A stretch of DNA of 64,000 nucleotides from Bacillus sp. (in: firmicutes) (GCA_031180405.1 JAPSLU010000002.1:1-64000), one strand, 5' to 3'; shown: positions 31,475-46,729, counted from the stretch's first letter. Translations and numbers: made by a program. The notes: a model not told the origin generated them from the letters alone.

Positions 31475-32530
31475 CTACTTAGATTGTAATAATTGCACAA
31501 CTTCTAGTAATATTTGCTGAGCTTCCCAACCTTGGTTACCCTTTATTTTCGTTGATGCCTCTAAAAGCTTTTCAATTGAAGCTGTTTCTTTTTCAGTACC
31601 TGTTTTTATTGCTTTTAGTTGTTCTTCAACTTCTGTTAATTCATCAGGATTCATTACTTCACCATTAATAACAGAAGCAGATCGTTCAGTTAAAGAAGTA
31701 ATGGAATTTATCCATTGATCAGGTGTTTGTGTCGTTTCAATCGAAAGAGAGAGCTGCTTTCCTCCCCAAAAATCACTGAATTGTTGCTCTTTATATTTTT
31801 CATTCATCGCATTTGTCTGAGTCTTTTCCTTTCCTAATCCAGCTAAAACAGTAAAAGACCCATCTGTTTCAATAACGGCAGAAGCAAAGCCTTTTTGCTG
31901 GATATCAGCTGCAACAGTGTCAGCACCTTCTTTTGCTGAGAAAATTCCTCCCTGTACAGCATAAAGGTTGAGAGTAGCAGCCTGAGTTGCACTTGATGGA
32001 GGTTCCTGAGAATTTTGATCAGGTGTATCAGTTGCTGTTGGTTCTTCTGTGACCACCTCATCGATAGGTGTTGCTGTTGCTGGTAAATCTTCATTTGACA
32101 AAAAGTTTAGCGCTATATATCCAAAGCCCACTCCTAAACCCACAGCTAAGGTGACAACCGTTACGATTTGCTTCATAGGAAACGGAACGACGTTTCGTTT
32201 TCTATTCGTTTTATTTGAATATTGAAATGGTGTGACGTTTTGATTAGAATATATTTTCTTTTTCTTAGTAGAACTTACCACCTTCGGATCTTCTTCAAAG
32301 ATTGGTTCTTCATCAGGTAAAAGCCAAGGAAACTCGTCTTCTTCCTTTTTAGCAGAAGCCATTTCCTTTTCTGCCTTTAGTTTTTCTTCCCATGAAGATA
32401 TCTGGTATTCATTTGTTGACTCTCTTTTTTCTGTTAAAGGACGGTCCTTTCCATTTATTTTAATTTTAACTGTATCTGAGGTCTGCTTGTCCATATGCCT
32501 ACCACCCTTCTTTATTGCACGATCATTCAT
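31475..32530 (-). CDS. spoIIB: SpoIIB-like sporulation protein (TM + SPOR-like domain)
   Basis: Single TM, C-terminal SPOR-like LNLYAVQGGIFSAKEGADTVAADIQQKGFASAV; upstream of maf as in B. subtilis. Confidence 0.8.
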   Translation of the reverse strand: MNDRAIKKGGRHMDKQTSDTVKIKINGKDRPLTEKRESTNEYQISSWEEKLKAEKEMASAKKEEDEFPWLLPDEEPIFEEDPKVVSSTKKKKIYSNQNVTPFQYSNKTNRKRNVVPFPMKQIVTVVTLAVGLGVGFGYIALNFLSNEDLPATATPIDEVVTEEPTATDTPDQNSQEPPSSATQAATLNLYAVQGGIFSAKEGADTVAADIQQKGFASAVIETDGSFTVLAGLGKEKTQTNAMNEKYKEQQFSDFWGGKQLSLSIETTQTPDQWINSITSLTERSASVINGEVMNPDELTEVEEQLKAIKTGTEKETASIEKLLEASTKIKGNQGWEAQQILLEVVQLLQSK

Positions 32531-33986: not shown

Positions 33987-34982
33987 TTACACCTCTTTTA
34001 ATGCTAATCCAAGCACTCTATGAAACTTATTAGGAACAGCGATGTTTTTATTTGTGTAGACCTTCGTTTGTGGATAAGAAATTTTTATTGTTGTAACCGA
34101 CTCTTGTAAAGTTTTCATGAATTCATTTATATATGGATTATCACCTAACAAAACAATTTGTGTGATTTGGTGGTCTCCTTGATGAAGGCTGAAACGATAA
34201 AAATTAATAATTTTTTCGATTTCTTTTGCCATATCTTGAAAATGAACTGAGAGTAAGTCTTTGTCCTTTATTTCATATTGATAATAGATTTGAGTTTCAG
34301 GTTCAAGTTTATAAGACCAGTTTTTAATCATTCCATCTAATTGTAGATGACGAGTAAAAATAGGCTTTAACTTTTCAAAGATACTAAAAATAATAGAGTC
34401 AAGCTTTACTTCAACCATAAGCGTGTTATCTTTTTCCGAAACAAACTTTTGGTTATAAAGTAATCTATAATTAGAAAGTGCTGACAAATCTGCTGCACTT
34501 GCATCTAATTTAAGATCATCTAGTAAGTCTGTATATTCGTTTATTACTGATTCAGGTGCAGCAAATAATAGGATTTCCTTGTGCATTTCTGTTTCTTGAA
34601 GAGAAACGAAATCAAATACAGGTTCTTCAAATGGAAGATGAATATTATGACCGAGTTCCAAGTAAAGATACCCTTTTATTTCATCATCCTTTAAATCATT
34701 TGGAACCTTAACTTTTCGGACACTTACAAAGGCATCTGGTGTAATAAAGCGAACCTGCTTCCTTTTCACGCCCCAATCATGAATAAGTTGCTCTAAAATC
34801 ATCGACAGCTTTTCAGGATCCTTTATACTGCCACCCACTACTATGCCTTCAGGAAGGTAGGATTCCACAAAACGATTGACGACAAGAGGTTCTACACTTT
34901 TCAGTTCAAGTAATTGAATAGAGTAATTCGATATATATAAGTTCACTGCATGTTGTTTTTGAGAAAAAAAACGAATAGCCAC
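33987..34982 (-). CDS. pilM: Type IV pilus assembly ATPase-fold protein PilM
   Basis: PilM-like actin fold; directly upstream of pilN. Confidence 0.88.
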   Translation of the reverse strand: MAIRFFSQKQHAVNLYISNYSIQLLELKSVEPLVVNRFVESYLPEGIVVGGSIKDPEKLSMILEQLIHDWGVKRKQVRFITPDAFVSVRKVKVPNDLKDDEIKGYLYLELGHNIHLPFEEPVFDFVSLQETEMHKEILLFAAPESVINEYTDLLDDLKLDASAADLSALSNYRLLYNQKFVSEKDNTLMVEVKLDSIIFSIFEKLKPIFTRHLQLDGMIKNWSYKLEPETQIYYQYEIKDKDLLSVHFQDMAKEIEKIINFYRFSLHQGDHQITQIVLLGDNPYINEFMKTLQESVTTIKISYPQTKVYTNKNIAVPNKFHRVLGLALKEV

Positions 34983-38671: not shown

Positions 38672-40333
38672 CTACTCAGTTACTGCCACACGCAGGATTT
38701 CTTCTGTTGTTGTGAACCCTTGCTTTACCTTTAGTAATCCATCATCAATTAAAAAAATTGTTTTATTTTTTATTGCTAGCTCACGAAGCTTTGAAAATGG
38801 TTCATTATTCATAATGACTCGCTTCATTTCATCATTCAAAACTAGTAATTCATGGATGGCAATTCTCCCTTTATACCCTGTCATATTACATGTCCCGCAG
38901 CCTTTACCTCTAACAATGCGATTAATAGATAGTCTCCGTTTTGCAAAAATCTCAATTTCCCTTTTTGTTGGTGTTTGTTCGTCAGCACAATCTCTGCACA
39001 CTTTTCGAACAAGTCTTTGAGCAACTACACCCGTTAGGGAAGAAGCAACTAAAAAGGGATCTACCCCCATATCTATTAAACGAGTAATTGTTCCTAGCGA
39101 GTCGTTAGTATGAAGTGTACTTAAAACCAAATGACCTGTTAAGGATGCACGAACTGCCACATCTGCTGTTTCGCGATCACGGATCTCTCCAACCATAATA
39201 ATATTTGGATCTTGACGTAATATGGAACGCAGCCCTTTTGCAAAAGTCATGCCGACATTAGAATTTACTTGAATCTGATTTATACCTTCAAGCTGATATT
39301 CAACAGGATCCTCAATTGTAATAATGTTCACTTCTTCTGAATTCAAGTGGTTTAAAGCTGCATACAAGGTCGAAGACTTTCCTGACCCAGTTGGACCTGT
39401 AATGAGCATAATGCCTGTTGGACTTTCTATTAACTCTTTAAATCTCTTTAAATTTAAATTATTAAACCCTAATTTATTTAGATCATTTAATGTACTACCA
39501 AGATCTAATATTCGCATTACAATTTTTTCACCGTAAATCGTTGGAAGTGTAGAAACACGTAAATCAATAGGATGAAACTCTACATGCATTTTTATTCGTC
39601 CATCTTGTGGTACTCGGTGCTCAGTAATATCTAAATTTGCCATAATTTTCAGACGGGCGATCAAGACGCTTTGCATATGCTTTGGAAAAGTACGCTCATT
39701 TTTTAATATTCCATCCACACGGAATCGGATGAGTACTTTTGTTTCTTGAGGATCAATATGAATATCACTTGCCTTTTGTTGAACAGCATTCTGAAGAATT
39801 TGATTGACAAGTCTGACTATTGGTGAATCATCTGATGTGATTTTCTCTTCCTGGACATCTTCTTGAACAGTTAACTGATTCATAATATCTAACATGCCAT
39901 CATCAGTTTCATAATATTTGTTAATTACTCTTAGAATATCATCCTTTGAAGCAATAGCTGTTTCAATTTGAAAGCCTGTTGCAAGCCGTAAATCGTCAAT
40001 GACATAAAAATCCATTGGGTCGGCCATTGCAACAAATAGCTTCTCACCTTCCACTTTTATTGGTATTAATAAATTTCGTTTTGCCATTTCTTTAGGTACT
40101 AATTTAATTAGATTTTGATCGAAAGGAAAACGATATAAGCTTACATGCGGGATACCTAATTGAAACTCTAAGACCTCAATTAATTGCTGCTCGGTAATAT
40201 AACCCCTTTCAAGTAACGCATCACCTAAACGTTGACCTTTTCGTTTTTCAGCTAACGCCAATTTTAACTGTTCATCTGTAATGAGTCCTGAATCTAAAAG
40301 TAAATCTCCTAATCTCTTTCTCGAATCATTCAT
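38672..40333 (-). CDS. pilB: Type IV pilus extension ATPase PilB (MshEN N-terminus)
   Basis: RLGDLLLDSGLITDEQL repeats, ITGPTGSGKSSTLYAAL, tetracysteine CRDCADE...CGTCNMTGYKGR. Confidence 0.96.
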   Translation of the reverse strand: MNDSRKRLGDLLLDSGLITDEQLKLALAEKRKGQRLGDALLERGYITEQQLIEVLEFQLGIPHVSLYRFPFDQNLIKLVPKEMAKRNLLIPIKVEGEKLFVAMADPMDFYVIDDLRLATGFQIETAIASKDDILRVINKYYETDDGMLDIMNQLTVQEDVQEEKITSDDSPIVRLVNQILQNAVQQKASDIHIDPQETKVLIRFRVDGILKNERTFPKHMQSVLIARLKIMANLDITEHRVPQDGRIKMHVEFHPIDLRVSTLPTIYGEKIVMRILDLGSTLNDLNKLGFNNLNLKRFKELIESPTGIMLITGPTGSGKSSTLYAALNHLNSEEVNIITIEDPVEYQLEGINQIQVNSNVGMTFAKGLRSILRQDPNIIMVGEIRDRETADVAVRASLTGHLVLSTLHTNDSLGTITRLIDMGVDPFLVASSLTGVVAQRLVRKVCRDCADEQTPTKREIEIFAKRRLSINRIVRGKGCGTCNMTGYKGRIAIHELLVLNDEMKRVIMNNEPFSKLRELAIKNKTIFLIDDGLLKVKQGFTTTEEILRVAVTE

Positions 40334-40357: not shown

Positions 40358-41704
40358 TTATTTTTCAAGTCCTTTAGTGGGAGTTTCCCAAATTCCATTA
40401 TCGTCAATTTCATCGTGCTGACTAACAGAAGACTTACCAGCACCACTTTCATCGACTTGCTTTTCAGAGGGGTCATATTCCTCTTCAGGAATGTTTGGAT
40501 CATTTTCCTCTTCTGCTGAACTCTGTGAATAATCATTTTCAACAATTGCTGGGTTCTCATTAGTTATTATTCTATTAATCAAGCCTGTTTCAATTATTTT
40601 ATGAGTAGGAGGATAAAAGTCTTCTGAAATCTTTTCTGATTCAACAAGGGCACCACTCGTGTCATAAATCTCTCTGGTTACTTTAACGAATAATCCATCC
40701 CGCCCATCTACTTTTACCACTTCTTCCCCTTCTTCTAGCAAGCTGGTAAATCGTACAATTGTCTTAAAAGCATATGAAGTTTGGTCTTTAAACTTAATAG
40801 TGTAGCTTTGTAAAAAAGGTGCACCACTTACTCTACTATATAAGCCTTCTTCAGTTAATTGAAAGGTAATGTTGTAGTCTGTTTGGTTGGGATTGAACCA
40901 CTTCAGATCAGATTTTTCGGGGACAATACTTGCCTCAAGCCCTAATTCAATAAAGTCAGGTAATGTTTGACTCGTATGTCTCTCAATTACAACAAAATTA
41001 GTTAGTAAAATCGTTTTATATAGAGATGAAGAAACAACACTTAGCGCTTCTTGTGGAAGCTTGCCTTTTTCCTTAATAAGATCAAGAAAAGAGACTTGTG
41101 ACTGAGCCGGAACCACTACTGTTCCAAGCGCATCAAGCACCTTTTGAACATCATTTCGGTTAAAAGATGTTGTCAGATTATTTTCGGCAGCTATTGAATT
41201 TAAGTCATTTTTCATAAAAGCTTGTATGGTGAAAAATTGCTTTTCATTTGCCATATTGTTCACGGAATTTACAAGTATCTCCTGTAATTGATTATGGTCA
41301 ATTAAATTAAATTGTTCATTTAGCCTACTTTTTAATTCCGCTTCATAAATAGCTTGATTTATACGTACATTAAACTTGTTATCTTTACCATCTTTAGCTT
41401 TTTCGACGGTATCTGGCAAATCCATAATAAAATAATCCTGACCAATGACCAGGTTTTCTTCATTAATAGTAACCTGAAGGTTTTCTTCACTAAACCATGT
41501 TGCTAGTCTTTTTTCTAATTTCGTCACAGCCTCAGCTTTTGTCATTTTTTCTATATTGACCGAAGCGATTTGTGTTCCAGGCTTAAATGCCCCCTTGTAA
41601 AGAAAGGCATCAAATGCCATTACACCGTAATGAGAGAAGGTGATTAGATAAACAGTGGAAATCATTAATATACAAGTTATTCTCAACCATCTGTTTGCGA
41701 TCAA
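40358..41704 (-). CDS. VanW-like / G5-domain-like membrane-anchored extracellular protein of the pilus operon
   Basis: N-terminal signal/TM; FKPGTQIASVNIEKMTKAEAVTKLEKRL VanW-N-like region; C-terminal G5-like TIVRFTSLLEEGEEVVKVDGRDGLFVKVTREIYDTSGALVESEKIS. Confidence 0.65.
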   Translation of the reverse strand: MIANRWLRITCILMISTVYLITFSHYGVMAFDAFLYKGAFKPGTQIASVNIEKMTKAEAVTKLEKRLATWFSEENLQVTINEENLVIGQDYFIMDLPDTVEKAKDGKDNKFNVRINQAIYEAELKSRLNEQFNLIDHNQLQEILVNSVNNMANEKQFFTIQAFMKNDLNSIAAENNLTTSFNRNDVQKVLDALGTVVVPAQSQVSFLDLIKEKGKLPQEALSVVSSSLYKTILLTNFVVIERHTSQTLPDFIELGLEASIVPEKSDLKWFNPNQTDYNITFQLTEEGLYSRVSGAPFLQSYTIKFKDQTSYAFKTIVRFTSLLEEGEEVVKVDGRDGLFVKVTREIYDTSGALVESEKISEDFYPPTHKIIETGLINRIITNENPAIVENDYSQSSAEEENDPNIPEEEYDPSEKQVDESGAGKSSVSQHDEIDDNGIWETPTKGLEK

Positions 41705-41720
41705 AAGCGGTTACTCCTTT

Positions 41721-42566
41721 TTACATTTCTGTATTCATAGACAATTCAACAAACGTACTTGGACCTTCATCCTGTGCCTTTTTTATATCATCAATGGTTA
41801 AAATTGTCCCTTTTGGGATTATTACTTGTTGAGCAGCACCATAAATATCCTTAATAACTGTCTTACCCTCGAGTAAATTAATTTGTTTTTCTTTAATTGT
41901 ATCAATGACCTCACTATTTATGTCTTCTACCTGACTATTAAAATCCTCTACCTTATTCTCAGTCGAGGCTTTGCTAATTTCGTTCGATTCTTTAGGTTCA
42001 TTCTCATACGATTCTTTGGTTTCAATCTCATACAATTCTTTAATTTCATTCTTCTCTTCTAGCTTTTCTGCAGATTCTAGTAAAGCAGATGATGCTTCTT
42101 CTTTTACAACAAGTATGTCTTTTCCGAACGTTAGAACATATTCTGATTTAATAAAGACATTTTGGTTATTTACAAGCAAATGTAATCCAATAATTAATCC
42201 CGTATCTTCATTAACATAAAATTCTTTCGCTTCCCCTAGTAACTGTCCTTTTCGGGTAATAACTCTGGTATCAGTAATTTTAATACGTTTGTTTACAAGC
42301 TGATTGGCAATTGGGATTTCATTTAGGTCGATAATGACATTATCGGAATCAATTGTCACAGCAAATTCTCCAATTCCTATTACTTTACTAAACGGAATTG
42401 CCTTTACACTCACTTGCCAATCATCATGCTCAACAGTTAAGAAATCAACTGTGCCTTTTTCCGGATTCACTACAAGTGATTTAACACTTCCAAGTTCTAA
42501 ACCAGCTGAAATACTTATGATTGGTAAACTTATGATTTCAGTACTCTTTTTCATATTGAAACACAC
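41721..42566 (-). CDS. PRC-barrel-like protein of the pilus operon
   Basis: Two PRC-barrel-like segments (GLELGSVKSLVVNPEKGTVDFLTVEHDDW; KGQLLGEAKEFYVNEDTGLIIGLHLLV) and an acidic linker; start may be MKKSTEIIS at 42554. Confidence 0.6.
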   Translation of the reverse strand: MCFNMKKSTEIISLPIISISAGLELGSVKSLVVNPEKGTVDFLTVEHDDWQVSVKAIPFSKVIGIGEFAVTIDSDNVIIDLNEIPIANQLVNKRIKITDTRVITRKGQLLGEAKEFYVNEDTGLIIGLHLLVNNQNVFIKSEYVLTFGKDILVVKEEASSALLESAEKLEEKNEIKELYEIETKESYENEPKESNEISKASTENKVEDFNSQVEDINSEVIDTIKEKQINLLEGKTVIKDIYGAAQQVIIPKGTILTIDDIKKAQDEGPSTFVELSMNTEM

Positions 42567-44153
42567 CTATTCTCTATATTTTTTAGTTGATAAATTAACC
42601 CATGATAATTGTTCAATCAAAATTGGGTAATGCTTTAACTTTTCATTCATCATTTCAGATAATTCTTCAAATTTCTTTACATTTTCTGTTTGGAGATAAT
42701 AAAATAATAGCTCTTTAGCAAATAAAAAGTAGTCTTTTTCAGACGTTGCCTTGTTAATGGCCTGTTGTAAAATCTGTTCAAATTGTTTTGCAGGTAATAC
42801 TTTTTTATATTCTATAAATTGTTCCAAGAGCATATCCAACAAGTCATTAGACAATTCACGTCGGTTACCTTCATTTTGGCTTTCACTGTCATCGATTAAG
42901 CTCTCTACCATTTCTTTTGATAAAACTTCTTCTGGAATTTCCGTAGCATCTTCTTCTTTAGCAGGGCTCTCTACATTTTCTTCTGATAAAACTTCTTCTG
43001 GAATCTCCGTGTCATCTTCTACTTTAACAAGGCTCTCTACATCTTCTTCTAATAAAACTTCTTCTGGAATCTCTGTGTCATCCTCTTCTTTAACAAGGCT
43101 CTCTACATTTTCTTCTGATAAAACTTCTTCTGGAATCTCCGTGTCAACCTCTTCTTTAACAAGGCTCTCTACATCTTCTTCTGATAAAACTTCTTCTGGA
43201 ATCTCCGTGTCATCCTCTTCTTTAACAAGGCTCTCTACATTTTCTTCTGATAAAACTTCTTCTGGAATCTCCGTGTCATCCTCTTCTTTAACAAGGCTCT
43301 CTACATTTTCTTCTGATAAAACTTCCTCTTTAATTTCCGTGTCATCCTCTTCATTGTAGATTGACCGGAGGTTATCTTTTTCAGTAACATCTTCGTCCAG
43401 TTGTCCCTCAACTTGATCATTATTCATTAAGCTCTCAAAGAGGTCATTTAAATCTGAGGACTCTTCTTCTAAGACTAAGTCTCTTCTTTCCTCATTTATT
43501 TGCTGGAGCTCTGCTGGAACTGTGCCTGTTTCGGTAATTCCTTCAATTTCTCGACCTTCAAAAAGTTCTAGTAAATAGTCATCCGACAAAGTTTCTTTAA
43601 GTTGCTGCGAATATTTTTCTTCTTCCCCTGTTGTAGCAACCTCTGAGAATGAATTCAATACTACTTTATGCTCTTCCATTTCATCGTCCTTAGAAGAGCT
43701 TGAGTCAAGTTGACTATAAAATTCCTCAAAATAGTCTACTTCTTCCTTATTGGGTAAAACGTCGATCTCAGATTCGTTTGTATCCATTACTTCCTGAACT
43801 TCTGCTTCAATTGGCTCAAGTTCATTTTGAGTATCGTTTACTTGAATAACTTGTTTTTCTACTGGTGTTAACACTTCTTCATTATTCGTATCAATTGCAT
43901 CATGTGCTTCATTCAACTCAAATAACATTTGTTTTTTACTCAATAAATAGCCTAGTGCGACCAGTAAGACCAGGATCGCAGATGCAGCTTGCCAAGTCGG
44001 CATTATTTGAACTGTAAAGAAAAATAACGCCGCAAATAATATAGCAACTCCTGCAAGAATCATTTTGCCAACATTATGTATTCCAAACGGAAGAATATAC
44101 ATAATTGGAACTAGGAGTATAAAGCCAATTATGAGCATAATATATGTTTTCAA
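42567..44153 (-). CDS. Membrane protein with long acidic region and seven tandem 22-aa repeats
   Basis: N-terminal hydrophobic segments; repeats EEDDTEIPEEVLSEENVESLVK; first gene of the minus-strand pilus gene cluster. Confidence 0.75.
   Translation of the reverse strand: MKTYIMLIIGFILLVPIMYILPFGIHNVGKMILAGVAILFAALFFFTVQIMPTWQAASAILVLLVALGYLLSKKQMLFELNEAHDAIDTNNEEVLTPVEKQVIQVNDTQNELEPIEAEVQEVMDTNESEIDVLPNKEEVDYFEEFYSQLDSSSSKDDEMEEHKVVLNSFSEVATTGEEEKYSQQLKETLSDDYLLELFEGREIEGITETGTVPAELQQINEERRDLVLEEESSDLNDLFESLMNNDQVEGQLDEDVTEKDNLRSIYNEEDDTEIKEEVLSEENVESLVKEEDDTEIPEEVLSEENVESLVKEEDDTEIPEEVLSEEDVESLVKEEVDTEIPEEVLSEENVESLVKEEDDTEIPEEVLLEEDVESLVKVEDDTEIPEEVLSEENVESPAKEEDATEIPEEVLSKEMVESLIDDSESQNEGNRRELSNDLLDMLLEQFIEYKKVLPAKQFEQILQQAINKATSEKDYFLFAKELLFYYLQTENVKKFEELSEMMNEKLKHYPILIEQLSWVNLSTKKYRE
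42891..43352 (-). repeat. In-frame tandem repeat, 7 x 66 bp
   Basis: Seven 22-aa units from EEDDTEIKEEVLSEENVESLVK to EEDATEIPEEVLSKEMVESLID; repeat boundaries coincide with 462 bp. Confidence 0.9.
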
Positions 44154-44395: not shown

Positions 44396-44830
44396 ATGAA
44401 CCATTTCATACGTTCACAAAAGGGGTTAACTTTAATAGAAGTATTAGTAGCAATCGTTCTTCTTGGAGTTATCGTTGTTTCCTTTATACCATTATTTATC
44501 CAATCAAATCGTATAAATACTCATTCCAAAGACATGATTAATGCTACCTATGTTGCTCAAACGCTTTTAGAAGATATACATTTTATTAGTAAAAAAACAG
44601 ATGATGATTTCAAAATTAAGCTTATCAGTATGGGGTATGAGGAAGTTGTAAATAATTGCCCAACTAGTTTTTGCTTCCAACAAGAAAATAGCGGATATTA
44701 TATCTGGACAGAATTTACCAACTTAAACTCTCAGGAGTCACTACCACACGCCATAATAAAAGTATATGAGGATCATTCTAAAGAACAATTAGAAGCACAA
44801 ATGGAGACAATTTTACCCTTAAAAAATTAG
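44396..44830 (+). CDS. Minor type IV prepilin (PilV/PulJ-like N-terminus)
   Basis: MNHFIRSQKG|LTLIEVLVAIVLLGVIVVSFIPLF class III signal. Confidence 0.88.
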   Translation: MNHFIRSQKGLTLIEVLVAIVLLGVIVVSFIPLFIQSNRINTHSKDMINATYVAQTLLEDIHFISKKTDDDFKIKLISMGYEEVVNNCPTSFCFQQENSGYYIWTEFTNLNSQESLPHAIIKVYEDHSKEQLEAQMETILPLKN

Positions 44831-44844
44831 AAGGTGAAAAAGAT

Positions 44845-45267
44845 ATGAAAAACCAACGCGGTATTAGTTTGTTAGAGGTAATTGCATCTATTTCTCTCTT
44901 TTCAATTATTCTTCTCATGCTTAATTCCTTTCATCTATTTAGTCAAAAACAGATGATTAGCCAAGCGGAAGAAATTCAAAATCAGTCAAATACAAGAATT
45001 GCTTTAAATGTGATTACGAAAGAACTTAGAACAGCAGAAAATGTAATTATTCAAGGTGATGAATTAGTTATTAATCAAACAGATACATACAAGCATGTAT
45101 CAAACACTATTACCAAGAATAATGTAGCTTACATCAAGAATATTAAAAAATTCACTTTTGCTTTTGATGAGGATGAAGAAAAAAAAATCAATATATTTAT
45201 TGAAAGTCTTCCCTCCAAAGAAGAAAAAGCACTTAAGCTTTCAACTTCAATATATATTAGAAACTAG
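44845..45267 (+). CDS. Minor type IV prepilin (PilW-like N-terminus)
   Basis: MKNQRG|ISLLEVIASISLFSIILLMLNSF class III signal. Confidence 0.85.
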   Translation: MKNQRGISLLEVIASISLFSIILLMLNSFHLFSQKQMISQAEEIQNQSNTRIALNVITKELRTAENVIIQGDELVINQTDTYKHVSNTITKNNVAYIKNIKKFTFAFDEDEEKKINIFIESLPSKEEKALKLSTSIYIRN

Positions 45268-45277
45268 GTGAAAAACA

Positions 45278-46729
45278 GTGGGCGTTCTCAATAAATTAAG
45301 ACTGATAAAAAATGAAAATAGTGGATTTGCCTTACTCTCTGTCCTAATTGTTTTACTAGTCGTTTCATTATTAGGAATAACTTTAATAGGTACAACAACT
45401 GCAAATCTAAAATTAACCTCTGTTGAACGAGATTATCAAGCAACATATTATATAGCTGAGTCTGGTTCCACTTATGTCTTAAATGAAGTTACAAAAATAA
45501 TTAATGAAACTCAAGCAATAAACGCAAATGACTTTTTCACAAAAATAAATGAAAAATTAGCTGAAATTCCTAATACTTATAGTGACTTCGAAGAATCATT
45601 TGGTCAAATACCCAAAGCACATTTGCAGATTTTCAAACTATCTTCTATTGATTCTAGTCAGCTATGTGGTAATCACGTTGATAAACAATCACAAGGATAT
45701 AAAGTAATCTCTGAAGGTGAGATTGGGAAGAGAAGTAGAATAGTAGAAAGATCTTTTTGTGTAAACTGGAATATAAATCAAAATGGAAACTTACCTTTTG
45801 TTCTACTAGAAAATAACGCTGTATTTAGTCACGATAAAATTCTACTCGGATCATCAATTACTGGAAATATCGGTACAAATTCTACTATACCCGGTTCAAT
45901 TTATGTGAATTCGGGTGGAACATTGACGGGTAGTATTTATAAGGTACAGGAAGCAAGTAGTAATATTGTAGAAAAACCTCAAAACAAGAATTTTAATAGA
46001 CCATTTATTGATCTCCCAAATGCAATGAATTATAAAGGTTTCTTAGACTTTCCAAGTTTTCCAGAGGGACTTCCAACCTTTAATAATTTAAGAATCGAAG
46101 GTGACGCGATAAATGATAAAACCATCAGCAGTAATGGTTATTATCAAAATATCACTGTTACCAGTGGACGTACATTAACAATAGATGTAGGAAATGAAAA
46201 TAGAATTATTAGAGTAGCTGATTTAGTAATTAATCAAGGAAACATAAATATTATAGGTTCTGGTACATTAACTCTCTATATTGAAAACTCTTTACTTATC
46301 ACTGGTGGTAGCAAAGTGAATGCTACCTCCTCATACAACCCAGAGATTCTTTCTATCTATCTCAAAGGTACTACTCCCCTTGATATGGGTGGAAAAAGTA
46401 AACTTGTGGGTTCCATATTTTCAGCATCTGCAGACATAAATATCAAAGGTAGTGCAGAGGTGAATGGACATATTTTAACTGGAGGAAATAATGTTGTTAT
46501 TGACGGACAGGGAAGTGCAGCTAACGGTCTTGTGTTTTCGCCTAATGCGCATGTCCAGTTAACTGGGAGTGGTTCTGTCGTTGGATCGGTTATTTCCAAT
46601 AACTTTTCTATGGGTGGTGGAAGTAAGGTAACATACAAGGAAATTGACGAATTAACTCTATCACCATTTTTTAAAGCGAAGGTTGAGGCACCTGATCTAT
46701 CAACTGGGCCAATAAAGGAAACAAATTAA
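45278..46729 (+). CDS. PilX/GspK-like minor pilin with a long C-terminal repetitive, beta-rich region
   Basis: NENSG|FALLSVLIVLLVVSLLGITLIGTTTANLKLTSVERDYQATYYIAESG PilX-type N-terminus; glycine/serine-rich beta-repeat C-terminus. Confidence 0.78.
   Translation: MGVLNKLRLIKNENSGFALLSVLIVLLVVSLLGITLIGTTTANLKLTSVERDYQATYYIAESGSTYVLNEVTKIINETQAINANDFFTKINEKLAEIPNTYSDFEESFGQIPKAHLQIFKLSSIDSSQLCGNHVDKQSQGYKVISEGEIGKRSRIVERSFCVNWNINQNGNLPFVLLENNAVFSHDKILLGSSITGNIGTNSTIPGSIYVNSGGTLTGSIYKVQEASSNIVEKPQNKNFNRPFIDLPNAMNYKGFLDFPSFPEGLPTFNNLRIEGDAINDKTISSNGYYQNITVTSGRTLTIDVGNENRIIRVADLVINQGNINIIGSGTLTLYIENSLLITGGSKVNATSSYNPEILSIYLKGTTPLDMGGKSKLVGSIFSASADINIKGSAEVNGHILTGGNNVVIDGQGSAANGLVFSPNAHVQLTGSGSVVGSVISNNFSMGGGSKVTYKEIDELTLSPFFKAKVEAPDLSTGPIKETN

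What the first reader, a model, noticed from the sequence alone, without database searches (positions are those of the whole stretch)
40358..44153. Three uncharacterised pilus-operon genes: VanW/G5-like, PRC-barrel-like and acidic-repeat membrane proteins
Seen: three consecutive minus-strand genes lie directly upstream of pilB with short gaps, and none is a canonical T4P component. One is membrane-anchored with a VanW-like N-terminal region and a G5-like C-terminus. One has two PRC-barrel-like segments. One is a membrane protein with a long acidic repeat arm. Inference: they may be Gram-positive-specific adaptors that anchor or gate the pilus through thick peptidoglycan, since G5 domains are associated with cell-wall or glycan binding. 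This is my best candidate for an under-described functional module in the window.
Basis: partly seen in the sequence, partly recalled or inferred. Interest (0 to 1): 0.65.

Follow-up and report, generated by a model that had tools for sequence, protein, structure and literature searches.

The report
Dead wall-enzyme in Bacillus pilus operon
Next to the pilus-motor gene, most pilus-bearing relatives of Bacillus carry a membrane-anchored protein derived from a cell-wall cross-linking enzyme that has lost its active-site cysteine, often with a separate two-gene pair for an acidic membrane protein and its PRC-barrel partner; both look like undescribed pilus accessory parts.

Summary
The three genes are real and lie where stated, but they are not one module. 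(1) The VanW/G5 protein is a core accessory of type IV pilus (T4P) clusters in class Bacilli: 50 of 62 sampled clusters have it, usually directly 5' of pilB. In the window's family it occurs only in genomes with pilM. It was absent from 20 clusters of other classes in the phylum. Canonical VanW domains are L,D-transpeptidases; the pilus form has lost the GGGxCQ cysteine motif in 44/44 sequences. It is probably a non-catalytic, wall-contacting T4P part. (2) The acidic membrane protein and the PRC-barrel protein form a separate two-gene unit. The PRC gene and the acidic protein's C-terminal helical domain are both present or both absent in 62/62 clusters. The pair relocates together, and one species has them fused in frame. 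Its predicted location is cytoplasmic, not in the wall, and five genomes without T4aP carry it. I found no paper describing either in T4P. Function is inferred, not shown; a linked-fold test gave no confident interface.

The parts
40358..41704 (-). VanW/G5-like pilus protein (448 aa), here called pil-VanW
   Evidence: Pfam VanW and G5 over cut-off; orthologues directly 5' of pilB; AlphaFold2 pLDDT 85
41600..41698 (-). N-terminal membrane helix of pil-VanW (residues 3-35)
   Evidence: DSSP helix 3-35 in the model, hydrophobic; anchor inferred
40835..41041 (-). C-terminal half of a VanW domain (residues 222-290); the preceding catalytic GGGxCQ block is missing
40583..40783 (-). G5 domain (residues 308-374)
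   Evidence: Pfam; Foldseek hits to G5 domains of HP0197, IgA1 protease, SasG, Aap
41721..42566 (-). Double PRC-barrel protein (281 aa, likely start ATG at 42554), predicted cytoplasmic
   Evidence: Pfam PRC, two stretches; alignments A2, A5; Foldseek to CdpB1/CdpB2
41724..41903 (-). Conserved C-terminal module of the PRC protein (KQxxLLxGKxVxKDI...VELSMN), outside both PRC domains
   Evidence: near-invariant columns in A2/A5; weak likeness to the N-terminus of an HD-GYP-type protein
42567..44153 (-). Acidic membrane protein (528 aa): 3 TM helices, acidic repeat arm, C-terminal helical domain
42900..43352 (-). 66-nt (22-aa) acidic tandem repeats of the arm
42594..42866 (-). C-terminal five-helix domain of the acidic protein ('ACIDc'), found in sampled clusters only where PRC is present
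38672..40333 (-). pilB, the gene that pil-VanW stays next to
33987..34982 (-). pilM, used as the marker of the T4aP system
   Evidence: NCBIfam pilM subfamily match, E 4.6e-25, below that model's own cut-off; place in the cluster

Best explanation
Two accessory units are stacked in front of pilB. Unit 1 (pil-VanW): a membrane-anchored, extracytoplasmic protein that descends from YoaR-type VanW L,D-transpeptidases (PG_binding_4 - VanW - G5) but has lost the catalytic cysteine block. I propose that it works as a non-catalytic wall-contact part of the T4P machine in Bacilli. It would hold the PilM/N/O/C platform against peptidoglycan, or keep a pore in the wall lined up with the pilus, taking the place that PilP/PilQ and LysM-type proteins have in diderms. 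Unit 2: the acidic three-TM protein and the double PRC-barrel protein act as a pair. The PRC protein would be held at the inner face of the membrane by the C-terminal helical domain on the acidic cytoplasmic arm, as an adaptor or localisation unit near the pilus ATPases. This pair is optional and not exclusive to T4P. Shown: conservation, adjacency, loss of the Cys motif, co-presence of PRC with ACIDc, joint relocation. Inferred: wall binding, contact with PilN/O/C, complex formation, cytoplasmic topology (from the charge pattern).
For: In the family, pil-VanW occurs in 24 of 80 genomes, all with pilM. The two pilM+ genomes without it have a block deletion pilA...acidic gene (L081) or a decayed cluster (L082). 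Class sample: VanW in 50/62 clusters, within 250 nt 5' of pilB in 23/23, 21/27 and 78/79 clusters of three sets. None of 44 pil-VanW proteins has GGGxCQ, while both canonical VanW paralogues of the same genome keep it. Across the named and extra loci only 1 of 78 strong VanW proteins has the motif, and it is one (L204) without pil genes around it. L112 is an intermediate: full VanW domain, Cys replaced (GGAATQ). VanW is a catalytic L,D-transpeptidase domain with a Cys-His-small triad in C. difficile LdtCd4/5, and some VanW proteins lack activity and have unknown roles (PMC12729407). PRC and ACIDc are together or both absent in 62/62 clusters and together in 80/80 named loci. The pair moves as a unit to a place after pilO in 7 loci. 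One in-frame fusion exists in L192.
Against: 12 of 62 Bacilli clusters and 20 of 20 clusters of other classes have no pil-VanW, so T4P can do without it. L203 keeps acidic-PRC-VanW where no pil genes are, though a pil cluster lies elsewhere in that genome. Five genomes without PilC/PilM of the T4aP kind carry a PRC gene of this kind, with an acidic membrane partner in the three whose neighbourhoods were read. The joint fold of ACIDc with PRC had pTM 0.37, with no confident interface. On the tree only three independent changes of PRC are resolved, all matched by ACIDc, p = 0.25. Wall binding by G5 or the N-terminal domain was not tested.
Confidence: 0.55

Rival explanations
1. The three genes form one adaptor that anchors or gates the pilus through the wall.
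For: All three are adjacent and co-directional in the window, and the pair lies 5' of VanW/pilB in 73 of 80 named loci; block deletion together in L081.
Against: The pair is absent from 28 of 50 VanW-positive clusters, relocates without VanW, and exists without T4P. Predicted location of PRC and the acidic arm is cytoplasmic.
Confidence: 0.1
2. Pil-VanW is still an enzyme, using another residue, and remodels peptidoglycan to open a passage for the pilus.
For: It descends from an L,D-transpeptidase family; a passage through thick wall must exist.
Against: The Cys block is absent in 44/44 and, in most, the whole segment is deleted. The ectodomain has no Cys at all in 65 of 78 further proteins and in the window's protein.
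Confidence: 0.1
3. These genes serve the chromosomal slot folC-spoIIB/maf (cell envelope or sporulation), and the pil cluster merely sits there.
For: L203 keeps acidic-PRC-VanW between folC and maf with no pil genes; L204 has a similar trio with a Cys-bearing VanW there.
Against: No pilM-negative genome of the family has pil-VanW, and nearly all of these genomes are at least 99% complete. Both L203 and L204 genomes have a pil-type cluster elsewhere. Clusters outside the slot (for example L097, L103) still carry VanW.
Confidence: 0.15
4. The acidic-PRC pair is a c-di-GMP-linked regulator of the pilus ATPases rather than a structural adaptor.
For: The PRC protein's C-terminal module resembles the N-terminus of an HD-GYP-type protein (E 2.7e-4 among 9950 ORFs; two best non-PRC hits), encoded near PRC in L206/L207.
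Against: Weak similarity over about 32 residues; no ligand data; no such neighbour seen in the pil clusters.
Confidence: 0.1

Closest known systems
VanW-family L,D-transpeptidases (LdtCd4/LdtCd5 of C. difficile) and YoaR-type PG_binding_4-VanW-G5 proteins
   Same: Membrane-anchored; same domain order; VanW C-half and G5 over Pfam cut-offs
   Different: Catalytic Cys motif lost in all pil members; in most the GGGxCQ block itself is gone; genetically tied to pilB
PilP/PilQ and TsaP/FimV (wall and outer-membrane partners of diderm T4aP)
   Same: Proposed place and role: link of the inner-membrane platform to the wall
   Different: No sequence relation claimed; the comparison is functional only and from general knowledge
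Archaeal CdpB1/CdpB2 PRC-barrel proteins (PDB 8qzo, 8onw)
   Same: Best PRC fold and sequence neighbours with solved structures
   Different: Archaeal proteins solved as a heterodimer; here two barrels plus a C-terminal module are in one chain. Their cell-division role is from general knowledge
Other pil operons of Gram-positives (Imam 2011 PMC3244431; Paenibacillus thiaminolyticus PMC9765702)
   Same: Same core set pilB, pilT, pilC, pilD, pilM, pilN
   Different: VanW and PRC-barrel are not mentioned in either main text

Membership tests
VanW-type L,D-transpeptidase | VanW domain over Pfam gathering score | tested here: met
   30.9 vs 27 bits, C-terminal half only; matched in 44/44 homologues at E<=0.01
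VanW-type L,D-transpeptidase | Catalytic cysteine in GGGxCQ | tested here: not met
   0/44; no Cys beyond residue 11 in the window protein
VanW-type L,D-transpeptidase | Catalytic histidine of the triad | tested here: inconclusive
   The His of the canonical SHS motif is replaced in most but kept in a few rows such as L092, L113, L122; its catalytic role was inferred, not read from the primary paper
VanW-type L,D-transpeptidase | Transpeptidase activity | not testable with these tools
   needs biochemistry
G5 domain | Sequence and fold | tested here: met
   30.8 vs 23 bits; Foldseek E 5.7e-7 to Aap, 1.2e-6 to HP0197-G5
PRC-barrel protein | PRC domain over cut-off | tested here: met
   37.1 vs 21.2 bits, two stretches
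Core T4aP component | Present in all T4aP clusters | tested here: not met
   pil-VanW 50/62 in Bacilli, 0/20 outside
T4aP accessory component of Bacilli (pil-VanW) | Restricted to T4aP-bearing genomes and linked to pil genes | tested here: met
   Family scan; adjacency. Not tested genome-wide at class level
T4aP accessory component of Bacilli (acidic-PRC pair) | Restricted to T4aP-bearing genomes | tested here: not met
   PRC of this kind in G438, G456, G226, G237, G258 without T4aP PilC/PilM; acidic partner seen in G438, G456, G226

The most novel reading that the evidence does not exclude
A cell-wall cross-linking enzyme was turned into a structural, non-catalytic wall-contact part of the type IV pilus in Bacilli, giving monoderms their own counterpart of the PilP/PilQ connection. 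The series from Cys-bearing (L204) to Cys-replaced with full domain (L112) to shrunken domain (window) is still visible among living relatives.
Probability: 0.35. Interest if true: 0.75.

Novelty: new variant of a known kind. Interest (0 to 1): 0.6.

Why it matters
How a retractable pilus crosses thick peptidoglycan in monoderm bacteria is open. A conserved, membrane-anchored protein of wall-enzyme descent placed next to pilB is a direct, testable candidate. It would also give a role to a subset of the VanW proteins that show no transpeptidase activity and whose role is unknown (PMC12729407). The acidic-PRC pair is a second, independent two-gene unit that seems undescribed.

Tried and rejected
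One three-gene module: rejected. Gram-positive-wide conservation: rejected. Strict T4P specificity of the pair: rejected. Fold of ACIDc joined to PRC through the natural in-frame stop, as a makeshift complex test: pTM 0.37, no interface claim. Unpaired alignment on the L192 fusion: misaligned and dropped. First genome-contig scan with the VanW protein alone found nothing. Foldseek found no PDB relative for the VanW part. PRC C-terminus and HD-GYP-type protein: weak lead only. Paper searches for VanW, PRC-barrel or G5 together with T4P found no description. Phylogenetic test of PRC with ACIDc: only 3 independent pairs, not significant.

Full report
Observation. The window carries a type IV pilus cluster on the minus strand between folC/valS and a SPOR-domain gene, maf and radC (SPOR). 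Directly 5' of pilB lie a VanW/G5 protein, a double PRC-barrel protein and an acidic-repeat membrane protein. Pfam supports VanW, G5 and PRC over their cut-offs. The acidic protein has a 66-nt repeat of 6.9 copies and an arm of 36% D+E.

Genome context. The window belongs to a Bacillaceae genome close to Metabacillus by its nearest named relatives (together with the contig lengths; inference). The cluster sits at the same chromosomal slot (folC ... SPOR/maf) in the intact family clusters, as far as the fetched stretches show. One genus of the family (44 genomes in the scan) has no pilM at all. From general knowledge, B. subtilis has only comC at this slot.

Conservation within the family. Among 80 genomes, pil-VanW is found in 24 and pilM in 26; no genome has pil-VanW without pilM. 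The two pilM+ genomes without it are informative: in L081 the whole block from pilA to the acidic gene is gone, and in L082 the cluster is in decay. So in the family every intact cluster has pil-VanW. These genomes are related, so the counts are not independent events.

Conservation beyond. In 65 neighbourhoods of the family and class, 62 have pilB; the combinations are VanW+PRC+long acidic 22, VanW alone 18, VanW + short three-TM protein 10, none 12. VanW lies within 250 nt 5' of pilB in 23/23, 21/27 and 78/79 clusters of three sets. Of the six exceptions in the class set, three (L083, L096, L108) are overlaps with a longer-called pilB ORF and two have gaps of 279-351 nt. In 20 T4P clusters from other classes of the phylum none of the three was detected. 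Pil-VanW thus looks specific to Bacilli.

What pil-VanW is. Canonical VanW domains were recently shown to be L,D-transpeptidases with a Cys-His-small triad (LdtCd4/5 of C. difficile), and some VanW proteins show no activity and have unknown roles (PMC12729407). The same genome as the window has two canonical VanW proteins with GGGICQ. All 44 pil-VanW proteins of alignment A6 lack the motif; in nearly all, the block with it is deleted. L112, from a pil cluster, keeps the full domain with the Cys replaced (GGAATQ) and a PG_binding_4 domain. L204, a trio without adjacent pil genes, keeps PG_binding_4, a full VanW with GGGVCQ, and G5. This makes a plausible series from active enzyme to non-catalytic pilus protein; direction of change is inferred. 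The AlphaFold2 model has pLDDT 85, with a long N-terminal helix, an alpha/beta ectodomain, G5 and a disordered tail. Foldseek finds G5 domains and nothing for the VanW part. One member (L092) has a lipobox-like start (LTGC), which fits membrane anchoring outside the cell.

What the pair is. PRC is highly conserved (67% mean identity in A2), including a C-terminal module outside the two barrels ending in VELSMN. The acidic protein has conserved ends and a variable middle. Its C-terminal domain (ACIDc, five helices in the model) is present exactly where PRC is present: 22 with both, 40 with neither, 0 with one, and both in all 80 named loci. The short form without ACIDc is found only where PRC is missing. 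In 7 loci the pair sits after pilO, away from VanW. In Peribacillus glennii (L192) both are in one reading frame as a 767-aa protein; this is one draft genome, and an internal start cannot be excluded. Positive residues after TM3 and between TM1 and TM2 suggest that the acidic arm is cytoplasmic (sequence reading, inference).

Not only T4P. Full-length PRC relatives occur away from pil genes with an adjacent acidic TM protein (L205-L209, L217; L218 similar by inspection), and G438, G456, G226, G237 and G258 have no T4aP-type PilC and no convincing PilM. The gene 5' of PRC has at least 2 TM segments and at least 20% D+E in 92 of 100 cases. Real exceptions are L213-L216, where PRC relatives stand alone. 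My acidic-protein profiles miss divergent partners (L210-L212), so the 62/62 figure holds for the sample in which both profiles work.

Limits. The tree resolves few independent changes (PRC 4, VanW 6; three usable pairs, p = 0.25). The joint fold of ACIDc and PRC used a read-through of the natural stop between in-frame genes as a linker; it is a computational device, not a claimed protein, and it gave no interface. No expression, binding or phenotype data exist for these genes in what I could search.

Verdict. The wall-adaptor idea is a fair guess for one of the three genes, now sharpened to a Cys-less relative of an L,D-transpeptidase family kept next to pilB in Bacilli. The other two are a separate, probably cytoplasm-facing pair.

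Noticed in passing
44396-46729 (+): Three minor-pilin-like genes (pilV, pilW, pilX types) are divergent from the pil operon; in some relatives they are replaced by larger versions with little similarity.
   Followed up: partly
31475-32530 (-): SPOR-domain protein in the spoIIB position directly after pilO; stays with the slot even where pil genes are lost (L081, L082).
   Followed up: partly
L192:8435-10738: In-frame fusion of the acidic protein and the PRC protein in Peribacillus glennii.
   Followed up: yes
L203, L204: Acidic-PRC-VanW trio between folC and maf without pil genes; the L204 VanW keeps the catalytic Cys motif and a murC-like gene lies next door.
   Followed up: partly
L206, L207: HD-GYP-type protein near an acidic-PRC pair; its N-terminus resembles the PRC protein's C-terminal module.
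   Followed up: partly
L113, L122 and relatives (families f31, f19): PilM ORFs of about 520-590 aa, longer than the usual 330-350 aa; perhaps PilM-PilN fusions.
   Followed up: no
L213, L214: Stand-alone PRC relatives with the C-terminal module but no acidic partner.
   Followed up: no
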